This document shows positions 12,209 through 20,451 of a stretch of DNA of 64,000 nucleotides, one piece after another. Each line of letters begins with the position of its first letter. The stretch's first letter is position 1. Below the pieces are notes generated by a model. It was not told where the DNA came from, searched no databases, and was given only the letters and a program-made list of their open reading frames with translations. The position numbers and the translations under genes were made by a program. Origin of the DNA: Verrucomicrobiota bacterium (GTDB lineage Bacteria; Verrucomicrobiota; Verrucomicrobiia; JABWAM01); contig JAHFSY010000022.1 of NCBI GenBank assembly GCA_023269615.1, positions 1 to 64,000 of the forward strand, read 5' to 3'.

Positions 12209-12388
12209 TCACTTTTTGGTCAGCTTCTTGATGATATGCCAGGCCAGATGCTCTTTGATTTCATTGTGGCGGGGTACGGGCTGGCAGACCTTTGTCTCCG
12301 GATTTTGATACCAATCATGACGCCCGCCATGCCTGATGAAAACCGCCCCGAGTTCTTCAATTTTTCTGACAAGATCACGCCGCTTCAT
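12209..12388 (-). CDS. hicA: HicA-like type II toxin
   Basis: The 59-residue protein starting MKRRDLVRKIEELG has the HicA signature: a small dsRBD-like fold with the catalytic histidine in GGRHDWYQNP and the conserved end VPRHNEIKEHLAWHIIKKL. HicA toxins cleave mRNA and are neutralised by HicB. The start at 12388 is set by a four-base ATGA overlap with the upstream hicB gene. The pair lies between the gcv operon and unknown genes, in a stretch with lower G+C than its neighbours, fitting an accessory insertion. Confidence 0.88.
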   Translation of the reverse strand: MKRRDLVRKIEELGAVFIRHGGRHDWYQNPETKVCQPVPRHNEIKEHLAWHIIKKLTKK

Positions 12389-12576
12389 GCCAATTCGAGC
12401 TCGGCATGGTGACGAACGCATGGGATCACACCACTCGCGAGATCGGCATGAAGATCAACCAGGTTCTCCTTCAACTCCTCATACGTTTCGCCCTGGGTCA
12501 TGTAATCTGGAAATTCATCCAGATGTCCAAGCCACATTTCACCATCCTGCCAATACGTGAATCCAAGTTTCGTCAT
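12385..12576 (-). CDS. hicB: HicB-like antitoxin
   Basis: The 63-residue product from ATG 12576 (MTKLGFTYWQDGEMWLGHL) has the HicB partial RNase H-like fold: WLGHLDEFPDYMTQGETYEELKENLVDLHADL. The usual DNA-binding tail is absent, as in the short HicB class that precedes hicA. An upstream ATG at 12621 would give 78 residues; it is less likely because the family fold begins at the internal start. The upstream sequence is A/T-rich with TATATATA, a possible promoter. Confidence 0.85.
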   Translation of the reverse strand: MTKLGFTYWQDGEMWLGHLDEFPDYMTQGETYEELKENLVDLHADLASGVIPCVRHHAELELA

Positions 12577-12711
12577 AAAGGAATATATATACCAACCAGC
12601 CTCATTTTCAAATGATTTCATCTGTGACAGATCGCGCAGCCTGGCTGGCGAGCACTCGTGCCGCAGGCGTGGGTGCGAAGCTCGCTCGATCAGATGGTTG
12701 GCCGCTGGGTA

Positions 12712-13321: not shown

Positions 13322-13993
13322 TTAACAGCAGAATTCCAGAAATGTCATTTCGTTTTTAGTCCGCCTCGAACTCAAAACAATACGGAGCCGTCTCTGAAAC
13401 ATCGGCCCATCCAGCGTCAACGTGTGGTACTCGCCATTTTCGCCGCACAGGTCGATTCCATTTTTCTTCCGCAAGTCACGCAGCTCGGCAACAGCCTTCT
13501 CATTGATCAATCGCCCCGCCCAACGCGGGGTGAGCCAGGGCTTCTTCACACATGAGAAAATGATCCGGAATTTCAGCGTGAGCAAACGCTTCAACAGCGC
13601 GAGACGGTCACGCCCCCACAGCGGCGTCAGAACCTCGACTCCCAGCGGCTCGGCGCATTGACGGATCCAGTTTGGCTGCCCGCCCACCTCGGCAATGTCA
13701 CCCGTGATCAGCGTCCCGATGTCATTTTTTTCCATGAGAAGACGAATCCCCTTCTCGTAACCTCTTCGGAACGGTGCACGGACACGGATCACGCGATGCG
13801 GCAAGCCGATGGCGGCGGCCTGTTTACGAATGAAGGGGAGGGGATGTGCCAGAAATGTTTCGTTGGGCGGTGCAAACGTCACGAGCAGCGTGATGTTGCA
13901 TCCCGCGCGCTGCGCCTCGTGCATCGCCAAGGCGGAATCTTTTCCGCCCGTCCAGAGAACCGCTGCATTGCACTTCTTGCCATATTTTCTCAT
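13322..13993 (-). CDS. DUF71/Dph6-like PP-loop ATPase
   Basis: The 223-residue protein has the N-type ATP pyrophosphatase loop LWTGGKDSALAMHEAQ at its start and the family signature CGENGEYHTLTLDGPMF near its end, both diagnostic for DUF71 (COG2102). Eukaryotic and archaeal members amidate diphthine; bacterial members have no diphthamide to make, and a subfamily has been proposed to act in B12 salvage. Start 13993 is supported by a four-base overlap (ATGA) with the upstream membrane-protein gene; an ATG at 14056 would overlap that gene by 67 bases. A second DUF71 protein lies at 16.1-17.0 kb. Confidence 0.85.
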   Translation of the reverse strand: MRKYGKKCNAAVLWTGGKDSALAMHEAQRAGCNITLLVTFAPPNETFLAHPLPFIRKQAAAIGLPHRVIRVRAPFRRGYEKGIRLLMEKNDIGTLITGDIAEVGGQPNWIRQCAEPLGVEVLTPLWGRDRLALLKRLLTLKFRIIFSCVKKPWLTPRWAGRLINEKAVAELRDLRKKNGIDLCGENGEYHTLTLDGPMFQRRLRIVLSSRRTKNEMTFLEFCC

Positions 13994-14643
13994 TCGGAAT
14001 CCAGTTTGGGAGTGTCTCGGAAATCGTTCTTCGCACACTCCAGCACATTTCGCCACTGATCCACATTTCGGACACGAGGAAGATACTCGCTGAGGGCGGC
14101 AAGCGTTTGATGTACTTTTGGGGCATAATCCTTGTACCTTTTGAATTCCGCATCAGGCGGCAACAGAGAGTCAATCAAGCGGAATGTTTCCAGTACGAGA
14201 GGGAGATTCGAGATTCTATGCTCCGCATCAAACGTTGCCTCCACTGCCCGATACCGCCATCGAAAAAAACTGCCTTCTGGAGTGTGTCCGTCGCCTTCTG
14301 ACGGTCTTTCAAACGGAATGTATCGTGAAATGCCCACCCCAACTCCCTTCCGAAACACATGCTGACATGGATGGCCAAAAATGCGCGCGTAGTCGGCAGT
14401 GTGCGAATCTTCCACATGCTCGAGATCCGCGACCTGTCGTGTAGAGATTCCCCCGATGTATTTGTTCTCCTCTACGTGGTTCTTGCTGTAGAGGCATTTC
14501 ACGCAGACCAGTTTGTAGCCATAGGATGTTCTGTAGGTAATCCTCATCTGCCAAGCGAGGATCACAGACGCCACGACCCCGATCAGCAGTACGCAAAAAA
14601 GTCTAGGTATCCACTTCCGAATTTTTGTGAATCGTTGTGACAT
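13990..14643 (-). CDS. Unknown single-pass membrane protein
   Basis: The 217-residue protein from ATG 14643 (MSQRFTKIRKW) has one N-terminal membrane segment (about residues 13-33, LFCVLLIGVVASVILAW) and an otherwise soluble, probably periplasmic, domain with a CVKC pair and several His residues. I do not recognise a family. A four-base overlap couples it to the DUF71-like gene that follows. An alternative ATG at 14676 would add eleven residues. Confidence 0.72.
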   Translation of the reverse strand: MSQRFTKIRKWIPRLFCVLLIGVVASVILAWQMRITYRTSYGYKLVCVKCLYSKNHVEENKYIGGISTRQVADLEHVEDSHTADYARIFGHPCQHVFRKGVGVGISRYIPFERPSEGDGHTPEGSFFRWRYRAVEATFDAEHRISNLPLVLETFRLIDSLLPPDAEFKRYKDYAPKVHQTLAALSEYLPRVRNVDQWRNVLECAKNDFRDTPKLDSE

Positions 14644-14976: not shown

Positions 14977-15900
14977 TCAAACCACGCTCCGGCAGGCATT
15001 GGCGGAACCGTTCCATTCGAAATGTTCGGGATGAATCAAATACGCCAGCAACTCAACACCATCCACCAATCTGGGCCCGGGACGCGCAAAATAACTGTTT
15101 CCGTCCACGGCGTACACACGCCCGTTACGAACGGCGGGCAGATCCTTCCAGCCTGAAAGTGTCTTGAGATGCTCCGACTGCTTCAATGCTTTCTCCATGT
15201 CGTAGCCGCATGGCGAAACGACCAGCACCTCCGGTGAGCTCTGGAGAATGTCATCCCATGCGACCCGGACGGAATCTGTTCCATTTCTTGAAACGGGATC
15301 GCTGCCCCCCGCCCATCGGACCATCTCGGGAATCCAATGGCCTCCGCAATACAGCGGGTCCACCCATTCCAGGAAACAGACGCGCGTGGGGGCAGGCAGT
15401 CGTTGCGTGATGCGCGTGATTTGCTCGATCCTGCCCCGCGCTTCCTGAATCCAACGCATGGCTTCAGCCTCTCTTCCCGTGCGTTGACCAAGCTTCAAAA
15501 AATCCTGAAGCACATCCTCAAATGTTTTCGGCGATTGCCAGATGATTTCAGGCGGCGGCTTCATGGCTGCAAGGACCTGCGTGACTTCGTTTCCGGAAGG
15601 AGCGCACACCTGGCACAAGTCCTGGGTGACAATCAGATCGGGCGCGGCCTTTCGCAGAGCTTCCTCGTCCAGTTCGTACAGGCTTTTTCCCTGGCGCAGA
15701 TGATTGCTGACCGCGACATCAATTTCCCGCGTGCTCATTCCCGTCATGTCCACGGCACACCGCACCACCACGGGTTTCACGCGAACCCCGGGTGGATGAT
15801 CGCATTCGTGGGAAATCCCAACCAGTTGATCGCCGAGACCCAGGGCGCAGACCATCTCCGTGCCGGAAGGCAGGAACGAGGCGATGCGAAGATCACTCAT
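14977..15900 (-). CDS. btuF: Cobalamin-binding periplasmic protein, BtuF-like
   Basis: The 307-residue protein begins MSDLRIASFLPSGTEMVCALG, the ASLxPSxTE pattern of the BtuF/helical-backbone binding family, and continues with LVGISHECDHP, PDLIVTQDLCQVCAPSG and the C-terminal NGRVYAVDGNSYFARPGPRLVDGVELL. No cleavable signal peptide is visible at the start, as in the cytosolic-looking members of this family found in bacterial B12 operons. Start 15900 overlaps the DUF1289 stop by ATGA. Context (BtuB-like receptor and cobalamin riboswitch upstream) supports a corrinoid ligand. BtuC and BtuD are not in the window. Confidence 0.88.
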   Translation of the reverse strand: MSDLRIASFLPSGTEMVCALGLGDQLVGISHECDHPPGVRVKPVVVRCAVDMTGMSTREIDVAVSNHLRQGKSLYELDEEALRKAAPDLIVTQDLCQVCAPSGNEVTQVLAAMKPPPEIIWQSPKTFEDVLQDFLKLGQRTGREAEAMRWIQEARGRIEQITRITQRLPAPTRVCFLEWVDPLYCGGHWIPEMVRWAGGSDPVSRNGTDSVRVAWDDILQSSPEVLVVSPCGYDMEKALKQSEHLKTLSGWKDLPAVRNGRVYAVDGNSYFARPGPRLVDGVELLAYLIHPEHFEWNGSANACRSVV

Positions 15901-16076
15901 GGTCTCCGCTCCACGAAATCGCGTCGCTCCTTCAAGAGCGGCCACACCTTGTCTTTTTCGTCGCCAGTCATCCGACTCCACGCGGCGATTTCATGGATGG
16001 TTCGAAAGCATCCCCGGCACAATCCGCTGTCGGGATCCATTTCGCAGACATCCACGCACGGCGATTCCGTCTTCAT
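15897..16076 (-). CDS. DUF1289 small cysteine-rich protein
   Basis: The 59-residue protein MKTESPCVDVCEMDPDSGLC... has four cysteines spaced C-x3-C-x7-C-x2-C and the RTIHEIAAWSRM block, both diagnostic for DUF1289 (YdhL-like). The function of the family is unknown; the cysteines suggest a metal or Fe-S site. It overlaps the upstream DUF71-CWC stop by four bases (start ATG 16076) and the downstream btuF start by four bases, so three genes are coupled in series. Its presence in a B12-riboswitch operon is a useful hint to function. Confidence 0.92.
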   Translation of the reverse strand: MKTESPCVDVCEMDPDSGLCRGCFRTIHEIAAWSRMTGDEKDKVWPLLKERRDFVERRP

Positions 16077-16993
16077 CTTGGAGCGGTACGTTTGGCGACT
16101 TCATCCTTCAGGCATTGGGGGCAAAAACAATCCTTCTCTATGGGCGGAGGCATGAGCGGAACCGTGCTGCACCAGCATTTTTCCCCCGCCACGTTGGCGC
16201 CACACAGAAACGTCACGCCACACTTCGGGCAGACTTTTTCCCTTGGCGATGGCTTTCGATCCTCTTCCGCGACCAGGTCGCAAAACCAGAACCCGAGCGA
16301 CTTTCTTGCGGGTTCGCAATTGTAGGAATTGGAGTCCTTGGTTGCCGCAGGGGCGGGCATTGGGCGGAATACCTTTTCGCCCCGGACGATCCGGAGGCTT
16401 TCCTTGAAAATGGGGCCCTCATAGACGAAGGAATGGAACTCCCCATTTTCGCCGCACGGGTCCACGTCCGGCGGCAGGTGATCCACAAATTCCCGGTCGA
16501 TGTCGCGCCCAACGATTTCCTTTCCAAGATAAGCCTCGTTCACGCAGCAGATGGCGGATTTGAAGCCCAGGCCGATGAATTCATTCGCGAGCTTCCGCGT
16601 GTCCATTTTCCACAGCGGATACACGCCAGTCATTCCCACGGCTGCCAGATTCTTATCGCGCCATGCCCGAAGGTCTTCGAGAAAGATGTCTCCGAAGATC
16701 ACCTTCTCCGCACCGAGCGCCTTGTATTTCAGGAGCATGGCCTCCATGTTGGCCTTGTACTCCTCGTTGCTCGTTCCGAGCACAACGACCTTGTGAAGCG
16801 GAAGTCCGATCGCCGTCACCTGTCGATCGAGGAGCTCCTCGCGGACGCCATGCATGGAAATTCTCCGGAAATTTCCGTTCAGCGTGGTGACGAGCGTCAG
16901 CACGTCGTACTGGCCCGACTGCAAAACCTTGTGCAGCGCCAGGGCGGAATCCTTCCCGCCGCTCCAGCAGAATATGGCTTTTTCCCGGGTCAT
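16073..16993 (-). CDS. DUF71 ATPase fused to a C-terminal cysteine-rich CWC domain
   Basis: The 306-residue protein has the PP-loop CWSGGKDSALALHKVL at residues 9-24 and the DUF71 signature CGENGEFHSFVYEGPIF near 181-197. After about residue 245 comes a second domain with seven cysteines (CPKCGVTFLC, CWCS, CFCPQCL), matching the cysteine-rich CWC family and probably binding metal. A published comparative-genomic analysis of DUF71/COG2102 proposed a B12-salvage role for a bacterial subfamily; the riboswitch and btuB/btuF neighbours here agree. Its reaction is unproven. It follows the receptor gene by 33 bases and overlaps the DUF1289 start. Confidence 0.9.
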   Translation of the reverse strand: MTREKAIFCWSGGKDSALALHKVLQSGQYDVLTLVTTLNGNFRRISMHGVREELLDRQVTAIGLPLHKVVVLGTSNEEYKANMEAMLLKYKALGAEKVIFGDIFLEDLRAWRDKNLAAVGMTGVYPLWKMDTRKLANEFIGLGFKSAICCVNEAYLGKEIVGRDIDREFVDHLPPDVDPCGENGEFHSFVYEGPIFKESLRIVRGEKVFRPMPAPAATKDSNSYNCEPARKSLGFWFCDLVAEEDRKPSPREKVCPKCGVTFLCGANVAGEKCWCSTVPLMPPPIEKDCFCPQCLKDEVAKRTAPR

Positions 16994-17026
16994 GGTTTTA
17001 TTCCACGGTCATCCTATCATCCGATT

Positions 17027-18901
17027 TCAAAACTGCACCTCAAACCCGCCGATGAACGTTCGCCCCAGCGACGGGAAACCGGCCGCCTGCTGATACCGAT
17101 AGCCAATCAGGTTTTCGCCGCGGCCAAACACCTTCAACCATTTCATAGCCTGGTACGAAACGAATAAATCCAGGCGATGATACTCAGCCAGTTTTTGGGT
17201 GTTGGTCGCATTGTCGAAAGCCTGCCCGGTGTAATTCCACACGGGCGAGATTTCCCATTGCTCGTCCGGCTCCCATACGAGGGACAGCGAGGCCGTATGT
17301 CGCGGAATGCGGACGAGATCGTTGCCGCTGAAACGACGGTCCTTCGACGTGGTCGCGTTGATCGTGAATGACCCGCGCGCCGAGAGCCCGTTGATGACTT
17401 TCCATTTCAACGAATTTTCAATCCCCTCCGCCCTCGCCTCGGAAATATTCTGGAATTTGAACGCCGCGTCCGTTGCGATCAGGTTCACGATGTTGTTGTA
17501 AAAATACGTCGTGTCCCATTCGAGGTTGCCATCCAGGATCGGCTGCGTGATGCCGATATCGTAGCCTTCCGAGGTTTCGGGAACGAGGCTGGGATTCGCC
17601 CCTGAAGTCGGGCCGAAAAGATTCTTCAGTTCTGAGATCGCAGGCGCACGGAACGCCGTGCCGAATGACATGTGAACGCGCGTGTCCGTCACCGGCGCCT
17701 TGAACACCTGGCTTGCACGATACGTCCACGCGTCGCGAAATCCCTCGTTGTCATCGAAGCGTCCCGAGAGCGTGATGCCCCACCAGTCCACGACGCGGAT
17801 GCTGTCCGTGGCATACGCGCCCTGGCTCGCACGATTGAAAACATTGTTGCCGCTCGACGCCTCGGTGGTCGTGTGTTCGTTGCGCGCATCAGTTCCCACG
17901 ACCAGCGTGTTCCATTCCGCCGTGTGGATCGTGTTCTGCCAGTTGAGCTGCAAGCTTTCGGAATGATTCACGAATTCCGACGGCGGCGATTCGGAACGCT
18001 GGCCTACGCCAATGTAGCCAAGCGTCAGCTTGCTCTCCCAAGCCTCAAACGGCGTCACGGTGACAGATGGCGACACGAGGAGCATGCGGCGGATCAGCCG
18101 ATTGTCCGGATCGTTGGCGCCAAGGCCGCGCGTGTTGCCCACGGTGCCTGTCGTGAAATCCGAATAACGGCTCGTGAGATCCAGTCGCACTGTTTCGGTC
18201 ACGTCACCACCCAGCCGCATTGCGCCCGCGGTCTGGCGGGTGCCGTTGTTCGGACGCTCGTTAGCCGAGTCGAGCCGTGATGCCTCCACGTTCCAGTCGA
18301 ATTCCTCGTGCTTTCCCTGCGAAAAAACGCGTTCGCGTCGCGTGTCGAAGGTGCCCGTCTCGAAGCTCGTACCATACGTGGGATCGCCCTCGCCGCGTGG
18401 AATGGCAAACGTCACCACGCCGCCCTCGGCTTCCGAGCCATAGAGCGAGCTTTGGGGACCGCGCAGCAGTTCGACGTTTCCCAGGAGCAGCGGCGGGAGA
18501 TCGGCAAAGTTGGCAATGTTATCCACCGGGCGGTTGAAGCGCAGGCCGTCCACCTGGATGAGAGTGCGGCTGAAAGGCATTCCGCGGATGGAAATTTGGC
18601 TCAACCCCGCCGGGATGCTGGTGGGATTGTTGATCGTGACACCCGGCTCGCCGCGCAGAGGGTCGAGAGTCTGGAGCTGGCGGCGGAGCTGGTAAGTCTC
18701 TTGGGGAACAACGGAAATGCTGGACCCCGACTTCCACGATTCCTCCTCGAAGCGCGTGGCGGAGACGACGACCTCCTCCATCTTGGTTGCGGGATGCGCG
18801 GATGCGCGGGAGACCTGGTTGGTATTTTCGGCGAACGTGGTACTGGCAATGAGACTGCAAGCGCACACGAGGATGAGGCGCGATAACGGCTGTGATTTCA
18901 T
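17027..18901 (-). CDS. btuB: TonB-dependent outer-membrane receptor, BtuB-like
   Basis: The 624-residue protein has a signal peptide (about 1-24, ILVCACSLIASTTFA), a TonB-box-like segment MEEVVVSATRFEE, a plug domain (ISIRGMPFSRTLIQVDGLRFNRP, LRGPQSSLYGSEAEGGVVTF) and a 22-strand-type barrel ending GFEVQF with the terminal phenylalanine needed for outer-membrane assembly. Length and plug sequence match BtuB receptors. A cobalamin riboswitch upstream makes vitamin B12 or another corrinoid the likely cargo. Energy would come from TonB-ExbBD, not found here. First gene of the B12 operon. Confidence 0.93.
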   Translation of the reverse strand: MKSQPLSRLILVCACSLIASTTFAENTNQVSRASAHPATKMEEVVVSATRFEEESWKSGSSISVVPQETYQLRRQLQTLDPLRGEPGVTINNPTSIPAGLSQISIRGMPFSRTLIQVDGLRFNRPVDNIANFADLPPLLLGNVELLRGPQSSLYGSEAEGGVVTFAIPRGEGDPTYGTSFETGTFDTRRERVFSQGKHEEFDWNVEASRLDSANERPNNGTRQTAGAMRLGGDVTETVRLDLTSRYSDFTTGTVGNTRGLGANDPDNRLIRRMLLVSPSVTVTPFEAWESKLTLGYIGVGQRSESPPSEFVNHSESLQLNWQNTIHTAEWNTLVVGTDARNEHTTTEASSGNNVFNRASQGAYATDSIRVVDWWGITLSGRFDDNEGFRDAWTYRASQVFKAPVTDTRVHMSFGTAFRAPAISELKNLFGPTSGANPSLVPETSEGYDIGITQPILDGNLEWDTTYFYNNIVNLIATDAAFKFQNISEARAEGIENSLKWKVINGLSARGSFTINATTSKDRRFSGNDLVRIPRHTASLSLVWEPDEQWEISPVWNYTGQAFDNATNTQKLAEYHRLDLFVSYQAMKWLKVFGRGENLIGYRYQQAAGFPSLGRTFIGGFEVQF

Positions 18902-19047
18902 GGCTGGATTCTCTTTCTGGGTGGGATGTGAGAGAACCAGCCGTCAACAACCTTGCGGGATGAAGACGACACGGACTCCCCCAATCTTGTTTTGTTGCGA
19001 ACAAGTTTTTTCGATCCGTCTTCACTTGAAGACAAACCGCATTGAGA

Positions 19048-19192
19048 GCGCCGCAGCCGTTATCCTGACTCCAGGCTTCGAACCTCGCCCCCGCCTTCAC
19101 CTCTCCTTGAGAGGTTGGCCTATGGGGGTTTGTAACCTGATACAGTGGCGCAACCGTTCCCGGTTCTAACGGGATTCCCTGCGCTGCAGCGC
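19048..19192 (-). ncRNA. Cobalamin riboswitch aptamer
   Basis: On the minus strand the leader carries the B12 aptamer hallmarks in order: GGGAATCCCGTTAGAACCGGG, the invariant GCCACTGTAT and the B12 box AGTCAGGATAACGGC. A ten-base P1 stem can be drawn between GCGCTGCAGC (19183-19192) and GCTGCGGCGC (19048-19057) with one G-U pair, which sets the ends. It is followed by about 146 bases of expression platform containing the hairpins GTCTTC-AAGT-GAAGAC and CTTGTT...AACAAG before the receptor ATG at 18901. It should repress the operon when adenosylcobalamin-type corrinoids are plentiful. Confidence 0.93.
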
Positions 19193-19266
19193 CTGCAAAG
19201 AACTGCGGGGAATAAAACGTCCGCCGCAGGAAAAGGCAATCAGAAATTTGGAAGAAAGGGAAAGAG

Positions 19267-19408
19267 TTTCGCGCAAAGACGCCAAGACGCAAAGCCCTTG
19301 AAACCGTGTTCTGTAAAAATAAGTCTGAAAGACATCAAGCCGCGTGAGTGCACGCGGCTTGATGTTCATTGCTCCTCCTGCTTTGCGCCTTTGCGTCTTT
19401 GCGCGAGA
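19267..19408. repeat. Inverted copies of the GCGCAAAGACGCAAAG dispersed repeat
   Basis: A 28-base unit at 19267-19294 and its inverted near-copy at 19381-19408 face each other around a strong hairpin. The right copy lies inside the last codons of the HAD-Nudix gene and encodes its tail SLAQRRKGAK. A third copy is at 39860-39887 and a degenerate one near 14.8 kb. This repeat is common in intergenic DNA of several environmental bacterial phyla. Confidence 0.75.
19332..19365 (-). terminator. Perfect 15-bp hairpin after HAD-Nudix gene
   Basis: Arms 19332-19346 and 19351-19365 (ACATCAAGCCGCGTG and its complement) pair perfectly around a four-base loop, directly beyond the stop codon of the minus-strand gene. 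The T-rich run that follows (TCTTTCAGACTTATTTTTAC) is interrupted, so a rho-independent terminator is likely but not certain. Confidence 0.65.
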
Positions 19409-20451
19409 CTCTCCGTTGCTTCTTTCAGAAAATGCTCCACCAACTTGCGCGTTGGAATATTCAGATCCAACTCACTCGTCTTCCCGGGCGCGATCCATTT
19501 CCATTCCTGGGCTTCATCGTTCAGTTTCACGTCGCCCGATGCGACGTGGGCCACGTAATTGAGCAGCAAAAAATGGGCGCTGCGGTGAAACTCTTTTGAC
19601 TCGATGCAGTCCTGCACCATCGCGAAATGGATGTCCTTCAATTCCAGATTCGTCTCCTCGCGAATCTCGCGGCGCACCGCGTCCTCGGATGTTTCGCCAC
19701 GCTTCACCTTGCCTCCCGGGATTCCCCACTTGTTGCTCCACTTTTTCGTGCGCACCATCAGGCATTCGCCTTTCTTGTTCAAAATCAACGCGCCCACCGT
19801 CGCCACGGGATGGCCGTCCATCCAGCGGTTCTGTGATTCCAGCACGAGACGCAGCTCGCGTAGATCGCGCAGGATGAAATCAGGCTTCCCTTCAGCGAGT
19901 TTTTCCTCGCGGTCATAACCCGTCAACACCGCACAAGCGTGAACCCCTCCGTGTTTCGCTGTCTCCACGTCATGGACCATGTCACCCACAAAAATCGTTT
20001 CCGAGGCGTCGAGCTGGTTCTCCACGAGGATTTGATGAATCACTTTTCGCTTGTCCTCGATCCCCACGTACGCCTTGCGGAGAAAAGGCGACACGCCCAG
20101 GCGGTTCGATTGTCCCCAGAAACTTTTCGAGTCGACGGTGCTGCAAATAAAAATCGGGAGATGATTGGCCCGTGCGAATTCGAGAAATTCCATCGCATGA
20201 GGCAGAATCGGAATGCGCTCCTGCTCGGGAAGCATCACCTCCCAGAATGCCTGGTCAAGGCCTTCGCGCGGAATGTGCGGCAGCCATTGCTTGTAGAAAT
20301 TGATCCATGGCAGACAGAAGCGTTCGCGAAAAATATCGCGGGAAATCGGTTCCGTGCCGAAGCGCGAAAGCACGTGGTTGGTTGCGCGCACCACCGCGTC
20401 CAGGTCGTCCACCACCGTGCCGGACCAGTCGAGGATGAGGTTTTTTAACAT
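19366..20451 (-). CDS. HAD-family phosphatase fused to a Nudix hydrolase
   Basis: The 361-residue protein has an N-terminal HAD domain (about 1-205) with motif I DWSGTVVDD at residues 8-16 and the GDMVHDVETAKHGG motif IV near 155, like phosphoglycolate-type phosphatases. The C-terminal half (about 215-350) is a Nudix domain with box GKVKRGETSEDAVRREIREE near 248-267. The combination could remove a nucleotide diphosphate product and a phosphate in one enzyme, but the substrate is unknown. The last dozen residues are encoded by a dispersed repeat, so the original C-terminus may have been shorter. Confidence 0.88.
   Translation of the reverse strand: MLKNLILDWSGTVVDDLDAVVRATNHVLSRFGTEPISRDIFRERFCLPWINFYKQWLPHIPREGLDQAFWEVMLPEQERIPILPHAMEFLEFARANHLPIFICSTVDSKSFWGQSNRLGVSPFLRKAYVGIEDKRKVIHQILVENQLDASETIFVGDMVHDVETAKHGGVHACAVLTGYDREEKLAEGKPDFILRDLRELRLVLESQNRWMDGHPVATVGALILNKKGECLMVRTKKWSNKWGIPGGKVKRGETSEDAVRREIREETNLELKDIHFAMVQDCIESKEFHRSAHFLLLNYVAHVASGDVKLNDEAQEWKWIAPGKTSELDLNIPTRKLVEHFLKEATESLAQRRKGAKQEEQ

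What the first reader, a model, noticed from the sequence alone, without database searches (positions are those of the whole stretch)
14977..19192. Riboswitch-controlled B12 operon with a DUF71-CWC fusion and a DUF1289 protein
A cobalamin riboswitch leads btuB-like receptor, DUF71 ATPase fused to a cysteine-rich CWC domain, a 59-residue DUF1289 protein and a btuF-like gene. The last three are joined by four-base overlaps, so equal expression is likely. Seen directly: order, overlaps, motifs. From the literature: DUF71/COG2102 has been proposed for B12 salvage in bacteria. Inference: the ATPase, with two extra Cys-rich modules, repairs or remodels incoming corrinoid side chains (for example amide restoration), and DUF1289 is a metal-site partner. 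DUF1289 in a B12 operon is a fresh clue to an unknown family.
Basis: partly seen in the sequence, partly recalled or inferred. Interest (0 to 1): 0.8.

Follow-up and report, generated by a model that had tools for sequence, protein, structure and literature searches.

The report
B12 uptake operon with cobalt-linked DUF1289
A vitamin-B12-sensing RNA sits in front of genes that would take up B12 and are predicted to mend it inside the cell, and one of them, a tiny cysteine-rich protein of unknown function (DUF1289), turns up repeatedly beside cobalt and B12 genes in unrelated bacteria, so it is likely a cobalt- or B12-handling protein.

Summary
In detail: on the minus strand a cobalamin riboswitch, a BtuB-like receptor, DUF71 fused to CWC, a 59-aa DUF1289 protein and a BtuF-like gene follow one another, the last three joined by ATGA overlaps. 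Corrections: the BtuF-like protein shows no signal peptide, so it is probably cytoplasmic; a second DUF71 paralog lies 0.9 kb downstream. DUF71 in B12 salvage is already published. New here: (1) a CWC-type cysteine module accompanies DUF71-B12 elsewhere, fused at either end or as a nearby small gene (12 of 80 loci); (2) in a lake Verrucomicrobium a DUF1289-CWC fusion directly follows DUF71; (3) DUF1289 sits in cobalamin operons in 3 of the 7 Verrucomicrobiota genomes found to have it, and beside cobS, cobB, a cobalamin riboswitch or Co/Ni-type efflux genes in 13 of 29 proteobacterial regions viewed (not a random sample). The host has MetH but no detectable CbiB or CobS, which argues against the published CbiZ-like role in this host; other DUF71 genomes do have them. 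Re-amidation is my best, untested guess. DUF1289 is absent from 44 of 47 DUF71 genomes tested. Listings of three DUF1289/COG3313 literature searches show no link to cobalt.

The parts
19039..19221 (-). Cobalamin riboswitch aptamer (RF00174), full model 1-189
   Evidence: 56.7 bits, E 2.1e-11; only Rfam hit above a gathering score in the window
17027..18901 (-). BtuB-like TonB-dependent outer-membrane receptor, 624 aa, with signal peptide-like N-terminus
16073..16993 (-). DUF71-B12 PP-loop ATPase (residues 5-207) fused to CWC module; motifs WSGGKDSA and ENGEFH
   Evidence: AF2 model pLDDT 85.7, nearest solved folds 2d13 and 3rjz/3rk1
16106..16231 (-). Eight-cysteine CWC module (residues 255-296 of the DUF71 protein)
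15897..16076 (-). DUF1289 protein, 59 aa; four conserved Cys (C7, C11, C20, C23) plus R25, E29, W33
   Evidence: ATGA overlap with the gene before and after
14977..15900 (-). Leaderless BtuF-like protein (PF01497); the fold starts about 6 residues from the initiator Met
13322..14056 (-). Second DUF71 paralog, no CWC, motif ENGEYH; 30% identical; outside the overlapped operon, role open

Best explanation
A cobalamin riboswitch heads an operon that would bring corrinoids in through a BtuB-like receptor and is predicted to handle and repair them in the cytoplasm, with the DUF71-CWC ATPase likely re-amidating damaged side chains, the leaderless BtuF-like protein likely holding the corrinoid, and DUF1289 likely binding cobalt or another metal through its four cysteines. 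Shown here: the gene order, the overlaps, the riboswitch, the domains, the missing leader, the absence of detectable CbiB and CobS and the presence of MetH in the host draft genome, and cobalt/cobalamin neighbourhoods of DUF1289 elsewhere. Inferred: co-transcription, receptor specificity, cytoplasmic location of the BtuF-like protein, the amidation reaction (from Dph6, the ligase branch of the same family) and metal binding by CWC and DUF1289.
For: Riboswitch and domains. B12-type DUF71 motif ENGEFH, the subgroup signature of PMC3541065. DUF71 loci elsewhere: cobalamin riboswitch within the stretch in 12 of 21 loci scanned, picked by length or rank; BtuB homologue within the stretch in 23 of 81 loci (many weak). 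CWC-type modules with DUF71: C-terminal fusion (window; P0038), N-terminal fusion (P0063, 19.0 bits, below the cut-off of 24), and a small CWC-type gene next to DUF71 or one gene away in 12 of 80 loci; of 10 of these 12 scored against Pfam, 5 pass the CWC cut-off, 3 fall below it and 2 give no CWC match. L028: BtuB, DUF6580, DUF71, then a DUF1289-CWC fusion with ATGA overlap. BtuF-like protein leaderless here and in L010, L012, L017, L031, L066, whereas L035 has a leader. CbiB absent in 6 of 8 and CobS absent in 5 of 8 DUF71 genomes tested, MetH in 8 of 8; G000 lacks the first two. DUF1289 contexts.
Against: No reaction, substrate or metal was tested. Only 3 of 47 DUF71 genomes have DUF1289, so DUF71 does not need it in general. 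G363, the other genome with the DUF71/DUF1289 pairing, has both CbiB and CobS, and so has G355, so a CbiZ-like role is not excluded there. The relative G005 has riboswitch, BtuB and DUF71 without CWC, DUF1289 or BtuF-like. Stand-alone CWC genes in Verrucomicrobiota were not seen near B12 genes (by eye, 9 of 12 regions displayed). 12 of 29 DUF1289 plasmid regions show no cobalt or B12 gene, and 4 more only a repressor of the FrmR/RcnR type. The host genome is a 94.8% complete draft (G005: 88%), so absences are not certain. The related PP-loop folds also include tRNA thiolases, so sulfur chemistry cannot be excluded.
Confidence: 0.37

Rival explanations
1. DUF71-CWC is a CbiZ-like amidohydrolase that cleaves pseudo-B12 to cobyric acid for rebuilding, as PMC3541065 proposed for the subgroup.
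For: Published bacterial anti-correlation of DUF71-B12 with CbiZ; some relatives sit in cobU-cobT-cobS-cobC clusters; G363 and G355 have both CbiB and CobS.
Against: No CbiB and no CobS found in G000, G005, G359, G360 and G365, so cobyric acid could not be rebuilt there; G349 has CobS but no CbiB. PP-loop enzymes usually form rather than cut amides (reviewer comment in PMC3541065).
Confidence: 0.11
2. The operon handles the cobalt or its axial ligands (for example decyanation, dealkylation or thiolate protection of the incoming corrinoid), with the CWC and DUF1289 cysteines as ligands and DUF71 giving the energy.
For: DUF1289 lies beside Co/Ni efflux genes and cobalamin genes; CWC and DUF1289 are cysteine modules; both are fused to each other in L028 and L239.
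Against: No such role is known to me for any PP-loop ATPase; no redox domain was recognised in the operon.
Confidence: 0.22
3. CWC and DUF1289 are structural zinc knuckles or stress-response proteins, and the cobalt neighbourhoods reflect metal toxicity (cobalt damages zinc and thiol sites) rather than cobalt handling.
For: E. coli ydhL (DUF1289) overexpression raised H2O2 and HOCl resistance in a genome-wide screen (PMC8228696, passages seen); chromate genes and formaldehyde/metal-type repressor genes also flank DUF1289.
Against: Does not explain placement behind cobalamin riboswitches (L202, L136, window) or after cobS and cobB.
Confidence: 0.22
4. DUF1289 is a chance passenger in this operon.
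For: Absent from 44 of 47 DUF71 genomes tested.
Against: ATGA overlaps on both sides; DUF71/DUF1289 pairing also in L028; 3 of 7 Verrucomicrobiota genomes with DUF1289 have it in a cobalamin operon (rough binomial estimate 5e-8 to 6e-6, assuming 3,500 genes of which 4 to 20 lie in such operons; it ignores kinship).
Confidence: 0.06

Closest known systems
DUF71-B12 subgroup of DUF71/COG2102 (PMC3541065)
   Same: PP-loop ATPase with ENGEFH motif beside B12 uptake genes
   Different: CWC fusion, DUF1289 and riboswitch are not mentioned in the main text of that paper (0 occurrences each); host lacks detectable CbiB
Dph6 diphthine-ammonia ligase and relatives (PF0828, 3rk1; PH1257, 2d13)
   Same: Fold and ATP site; TM-score by target about 0.8
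   Different: TIGR03679 91.5 bits against cut-off 197.3; EGGE/DxE motif replaced by ENGEFH; bacteria lack diphthamide (PMC3541065)
BtuF periplasmic B12-binding protein
   Same: Peripla_BP_2 fold; PDB 5ysc vitamin B12-binding protein E 7.6e-10, though the best sequence match is 4m7o, called iron-binding protein, E 3.2e-14
   Different: No recognisable signal peptide. The host also has an FecCD-type ABC importer with a leader-bearing binding protein of the same Pfam family; the models do not tell whether it carries B12, haem or siderophore
DUF1289 (PF06945; E. coli YdhL)
   Same: Same domain, 76.8 bits, same Cys4-R-E-W pattern
   Different: Sits in a cobalamin-riboswitch operon; the plasmid relatives with a metal-efflux context lie in dmeF, rcnA-like or CDF operons
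CobS-DUF1289 (Hyphomicrobiales) and DmeF-DUF1289 gene pairs
   Same: DUF1289 directly beside cobalamin or cobalt genes
   Different: No DUF71; in the 29 stretches a cobalamin riboswitch was found only in Cereibacter L202 and Caballeronia L240

Membership tests
DUF71-B12 subgroup | PF01902 domain | tested here: met
   144.2 bits, cut-off 23.2
DUF71-B12 subgroup | ENGE[FY]H in place of EGGE/DxE | tested here: met
   ENGEFH in the window protein; 76 of 80 related loci carry ENGE[FY]H
DUF71-B12 subgroup | gene neighbourhood with B12 transport genes | tested here: met
   riboswitch and BtuB-like gene directly upstream
DUF71-B12 subgroup | proposed CbiZ-like role: CbiB present to use the product (a need of the role, not of membership) | tested here: not met
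   PF03186 no match in G000, absent in 6 of 8 DUF71 genomes, present in G363 and G355; draft genome 94.8% complete
DUF71-B12 subgroup | enzymatic activity on a corrinoid | not testable with these tools
   no biochemical data
Dph6 | curated Dph6 model score | tested here: not met
   TIGR03679 91.5 of 197.3 bits
BtuF (periplasmic) | PF01497 fold | tested here: met
   83.6 bits, cut-off 27.5
BtuF (periplasmic) | signal peptide | tested here: not met
   Pfam match begins about 6 residues after the start; no leader by eye and hydropathy, no dedicated predictor was run; five of the six closest relatives found likewise begin at the fold, the sixth (L022) lies in a merged frame
BtuB | plug and barrel domains | tested here: met
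BtuB | curated TonB-B12 model score | tested here: inconclusive
   best NCBIfam match but 205.6 of 599.7 bits
DUF1289 | PF06945 domain with four conserved Cys | tested here: met
   76.8 bits; C11, C20, C23 invariant in 28 sequences, C7 in at least 90% (the L201 row starts after it)
Cys_rich_CWC | PF14375 domain, eight Cys | tested here: met
   30.7 bits, cut-off 24; eight Cys
Cobalamin riboswitch | RF00174 above gathering score | tested here: met
   56.7 of 31.5 bits

The most novel reading that the evidence does not exclude
DUF1289 is a cobalt-handling protein family: a Cys4 mini-protein that passes, buffers or guards cobalt both in Co/Ni efflux operons (dmeF, rcnA) and in cobalamin operons (after cobS, cobB, behind cobalamin riboswitches, and with DUF71-CWC), and together with the CWC cysteine module it forms the metal-binding half of a cytoplasmic corrinoid-repair complex built on DUF71 and a leaderless BtuF-like carrier.
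Probability: 0.4. Interest if true: 0.78.

Novelty: new variant of a known kind. Interest (0 to 1): 0.62.

Why it matters
DUF1289 has no known function in its Pfam entry; four papers in the searched library hold the name, and none of their titles or abstract starts concerns cobalt. The operon and the neighbourhoods found here give a concrete, testable hypothesis (cobalt or corrinoid binding). The CWC link and the absence of detectable CbiB and CobS in several hosts narrow what the long-open DUF71-B12 enzyme can do there. The leaderless BtuF-like protein suggests that some genes annotated as BtuF are cytoplasmic corrinoid proteins.

Tried and rejected
Protein searches: the CWC tail alone (residues 205-306) found nothing at E 1e-3, and DUF1289 found only itself, so relatives were gathered through genome searches and tblastn on plasmids. 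PDB sequence search with DUF1289: no match at E 1; fold search of its model (pLDDT 85.2): one match with E 9.5, meaningless. 'CWC is B12-specific' was rejected: stand-alone CWC genes in Verrucomicrobiota were not near B12 genes in the 9 of 12 regions displayed (L145, L149 and L151 gave no display). The 12 small CWC-type genes near DUF71 were joined by single-linkage BLAST clustering: against Pfam, L012, L016, L066, L083 and L085 pass the CWC cut-off, L010, L023 and L024 fall below it, L017 and L058 give no CWC match although the Cys pattern is visible, L072 and L082 were not scored. MeaB as a DUF71 neighbour in Chryseobacterium was not pursued (50-76 bits). My first wording called the host's other importer a BtuFCD; the models fit haem and siderophore transporters as well, so I withdrew that. 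An FecBCD-type transporter before DUF1289 in L208 was not counted as B12: its best NCBIfam matches are siderophore (EitA) and F420 transporter models, all below cut-off. The MTTB-type gene near DUF1289 in L196 was not counted either. Microvirga L237 was counted as Co/Ni-type efflux on a cation-efflux gene plus a DmeR-like repressor, though its metal is not known.

How the 29 DUF1289 regions were picked: from the listed rows (at most 60 rows a call; 76, 56 and 85 records matched in the last three), mostly one per species; H101 was taken knowing its nickel/cobalt label, and H66 and H115 knowing that they resemble the cobS-linked copy, so 13 of 29 is not a random sample. L195 repeats the protein of L192, and L207 (cut at the record's end) the downstream genes of L208. 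No matched control family was run.
Full report
What is there. The window lies in a 4.48-Mb draft genome (G000, 94.8% complete). Its class includes G205, which shares an order with G363, the genome of a record titled Verrucomicrobia bacterium, so I take the host for a member of the Verrucomicrobiota. On the minus strand a cobalamin riboswitch (19221-19039, 56.7 bits) is followed by a BtuB-like receptor (18901-17027), a DUF71-CWC fusion (16993-16073), a 59-residue DUF1289 protein (16076-15897) and a BtuF-like gene (15900-14977). Both of the last junctions read ATGA. A second DUF71 gene (14056-13322, ENGEYH) lies beyond; the draft genome shows only these two DUF71 genes.

The BtuF-like protein. 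Its Pfam domain starts about six residues after the initiator, leaving no room for a signal peptide, and the next earlier in-frame start would add 27 mostly hydrophilic residues. Related genes beside DUF71 in L010, L012, L017, L031 and L066 also begin at the fold; L022 lies in a merged reading frame and cannot be judged; L035 has a clear leader. No dedicated signal-peptide predictor was run. Elsewhere in the host genome (contig C107) a leader-bearing binding protein of the same Pfam family (75.7 bits, 24% identical to the operon's) precedes a fused ATPase-FecCD permease, without a riboswitch in the 13 kb taken; whether that importer carries B12, haem or a siderophore cannot be told. So the operon's gene probably encodes a cytoplasmic corrinoid-binding protein; I did not find this described (search listings only).

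DUF71 and CWC. PMC3541065 (sections 12 and 13 read) already assigns bacterial DUF71 with ENGE[FY]H to B12 salvage and suggests a CbiZ-like reaction. Among 80 related loci fetched (the best 80 of 583 matches, itself a capped list), 76 carry ENGE[FY]H. In 21 loci scanned (20 of the 80 and L139), 12 have a cobalamin riboswitch in the stretch. A small CWC-type cysteine gene lies directly before DUF71 (6 loci) or with cobU between (6 loci) in 12 of the 80; of 10 scored, 5 pass the Pfam CWC cut-off and 5 do not. The window and P0038 (named as a Kryptoniota MAG) have the module fused at the C-terminus and P0063 at the N-terminus (the last below the Pfam cut-off). Four of the separate ones (L012, L023, L024, L058) also carry DUF5522 above its cut-off. 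This pairing in different arrangements links CWC with DUF71-B12. CWC alone is not B12-specific.

What DUF71 can do here. PF03186 (CbiB) is missing in 6 of 8 DUF71 genomes tested and PF02654 (CobS) in 5 of 8, both missing in G000; PF02965 (MetH) is present in 8 of 8. G363 and G355 have both. G360 is the genome of the isolate Cytophaga aurantiaca DSM 3654 (locus L023) and lacks both. In such hosts cobyric acid could not be turned back into a cobamide, so the CbiZ-like role does not fit them, and the enzyme more likely works on complete imported corrinoids. The model of the fusion (pLDDT 85.7, CWC part lower) matches the Dph6-like ATPases 2d13 and 3rk1 (TM-score by target about 0.8); weaker matches include tRNA thiolases. 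Since Dph6 forms an amide, re-amidation of side-chain carboxylates is my preferred reaction; it is an inference.

DUF1289 beside DUF71. DUF1289 is rare in this phylum: 4 of 318 genomes over the cut-off, and 4 of 177 in the order of G363, one of which (G720) has the same contig position and size as G205. Of the seven distinct genomes, three have DUF1289 in a cobalamin setting: G000; G363 (L028), where a DUF1289-CWC fusion (60.9 and 21.5 bits, the latter under its cut-off of 24) follows DUF71 with an ATGA overlap (the contig ends inside btuB, so a riboswitch could not be seen); and G010 (L136), where it is the third gene after a 77.3-bit cobalamin riboswitch, behind a predicted secreted protein without a Pfam match and a pseudopilin-like protein, while no DUF71 match is listed for that genome. 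The other four (G205, G227, G641, G792) show no such context. Against a general partnership: only 3 of 47 DUF71 genomes tested carry DUF1289 (G000 and the genomes of 46 of the 80 loci, four of which lack a recognised ENGE[FY]H); in the third (G371) it is on another contig than the DUF71 locus.

DUF1289 elsewhere. In 29 plasmid or chromid regions viewed, all Pseudomonadota, DUF1289 lies with cobalamin genes or a cobalamin riboswitch in 5 (L188, L235, L236 after cobS; L240 after cobB with a four-base overlap; L202 as a DUF1289-DUF6925 fusion, second gene behind a 128.6-bit riboswitch), with Co/Ni or CDF efflux genes in 8 (L193, L194, L197, L199, L200, L205 dmeF; L210 nickel/cobalt efflux; L237 CDF plus DmeR-like repressor), with only an FrmR/RcnR-type repressor, with or without a P-type ATPase, in 4 (L198, L204, L206, L209), and with none of these in 12 (L187, L189, L191, L192, L195, L196, L201, L203, L207, L208, L238, L239). 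L239 (Vibrio) is a second DUF1289-CWC fusion (61.7 and 36.0 bits) with no B12 gene recognised near. Four further listed records (two Sphingobium xenophagum, two Xanthomonas hortorum) have DUF1289 overlapping dmeF by label. DmeF occurs in 88 of 72,556 plasmid records; of the 60 listed, 23 also have a listed DUF1289, 19 within 1 kb. About 0.07 shared records would be expected if the two were independent, an estimate that ignores shared ancestry and the metal-resistance bias of plasmids.

Reading. The four cysteines of DUF1289, its company and its fusion to CWC make a cobalt or corrinoid role likely; a general thiol or zinc role is possible (E. coli ydhL raised resistance to H2O2 and HOCl when overexpressed, PMC8228696, passages seen). 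Searches for DUF1289 (4 papers), COG3313 (1 paper) and DUF1289 with cobalamin riboswitch (0 papers) list no report linking the family to cobalt; of these five papers I saw passages of one and listings of the rest.

Verdict. A real, riboswitch-led B12 operon of a published kind (DUF71-B12 salvage) with two extra cysteine modules and a leaderless BtuF-like protein. On re-checking, the best explanation went from 0.38 to 0.37 and the CbiZ-like rival from 0.10 to 0.11, because G363 has CbiB and CobS, and the passenger rival from 0.05 to 0.06, because of the 44 of 47 genomes without DUF1289.

Noticed in passing
window 13322-14056 (-): Second DUF71 paralog with ENGEYH motif, no CWC, no B12 gene recognised next to it.
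   Followed up: partly
window 12209-12621 (-): HicA-like toxin gene (PF07927, 40 bits) and an overlapping gene with a weak UPF0150-like match (19.2 bits, below cut-off), as in HicAB pairs.
   Followed up: no
window 19366-20451 (-): HAD hydrolase fused to a NUDIX domain, immediately upstream of the operon.
   Followed up: no
L228 (G000 contig C107), 4748-6628: ABC ATPase and FecCD-type permease fused in one 626-aa protein behind a leader-bearing Peripla_BP_2 gene; substrate (B12, haem or siderophore) not told by the models.
   Followed up: partly
L202 1990-3897: Cereibacter plasmid: two divergent cobalamin riboswitches; one precedes a small ORF and a DUF1289-DUF6925 fusion protein.
   Followed up: partly
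L239 3989-4306: Vibrio chromid: DUF1289-CWC fusion of 105 aa without recognised B12 genes nearby.
   Followed up: no
L024 231-611, L012, L023, L058: CWC-type protein with a C-terminal DUF5522 domain beside DUF71, in three of them with cobU between.
   Followed up: partly
L010 6933-7502 and others: DUF6580 membrane protein recurs near btuB and DUF71 (12 of 81 loci); possibly a corrinoid transporter.
   Followed up: no
L201 3194-3273; L206: DUF1289 also next to chromate resistance genes; L201 has a chrB-a RNA element right after DUF1289.
   Followed up: no
L196 581-5726: DUF1289 between a GcvT-like oxidoreductase and betaine/trimethylamine methyltransferase genes (MTTB 588 bits); MTTB-type enzymes often use corrinoid proteins (recalled).
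   Followed up: no
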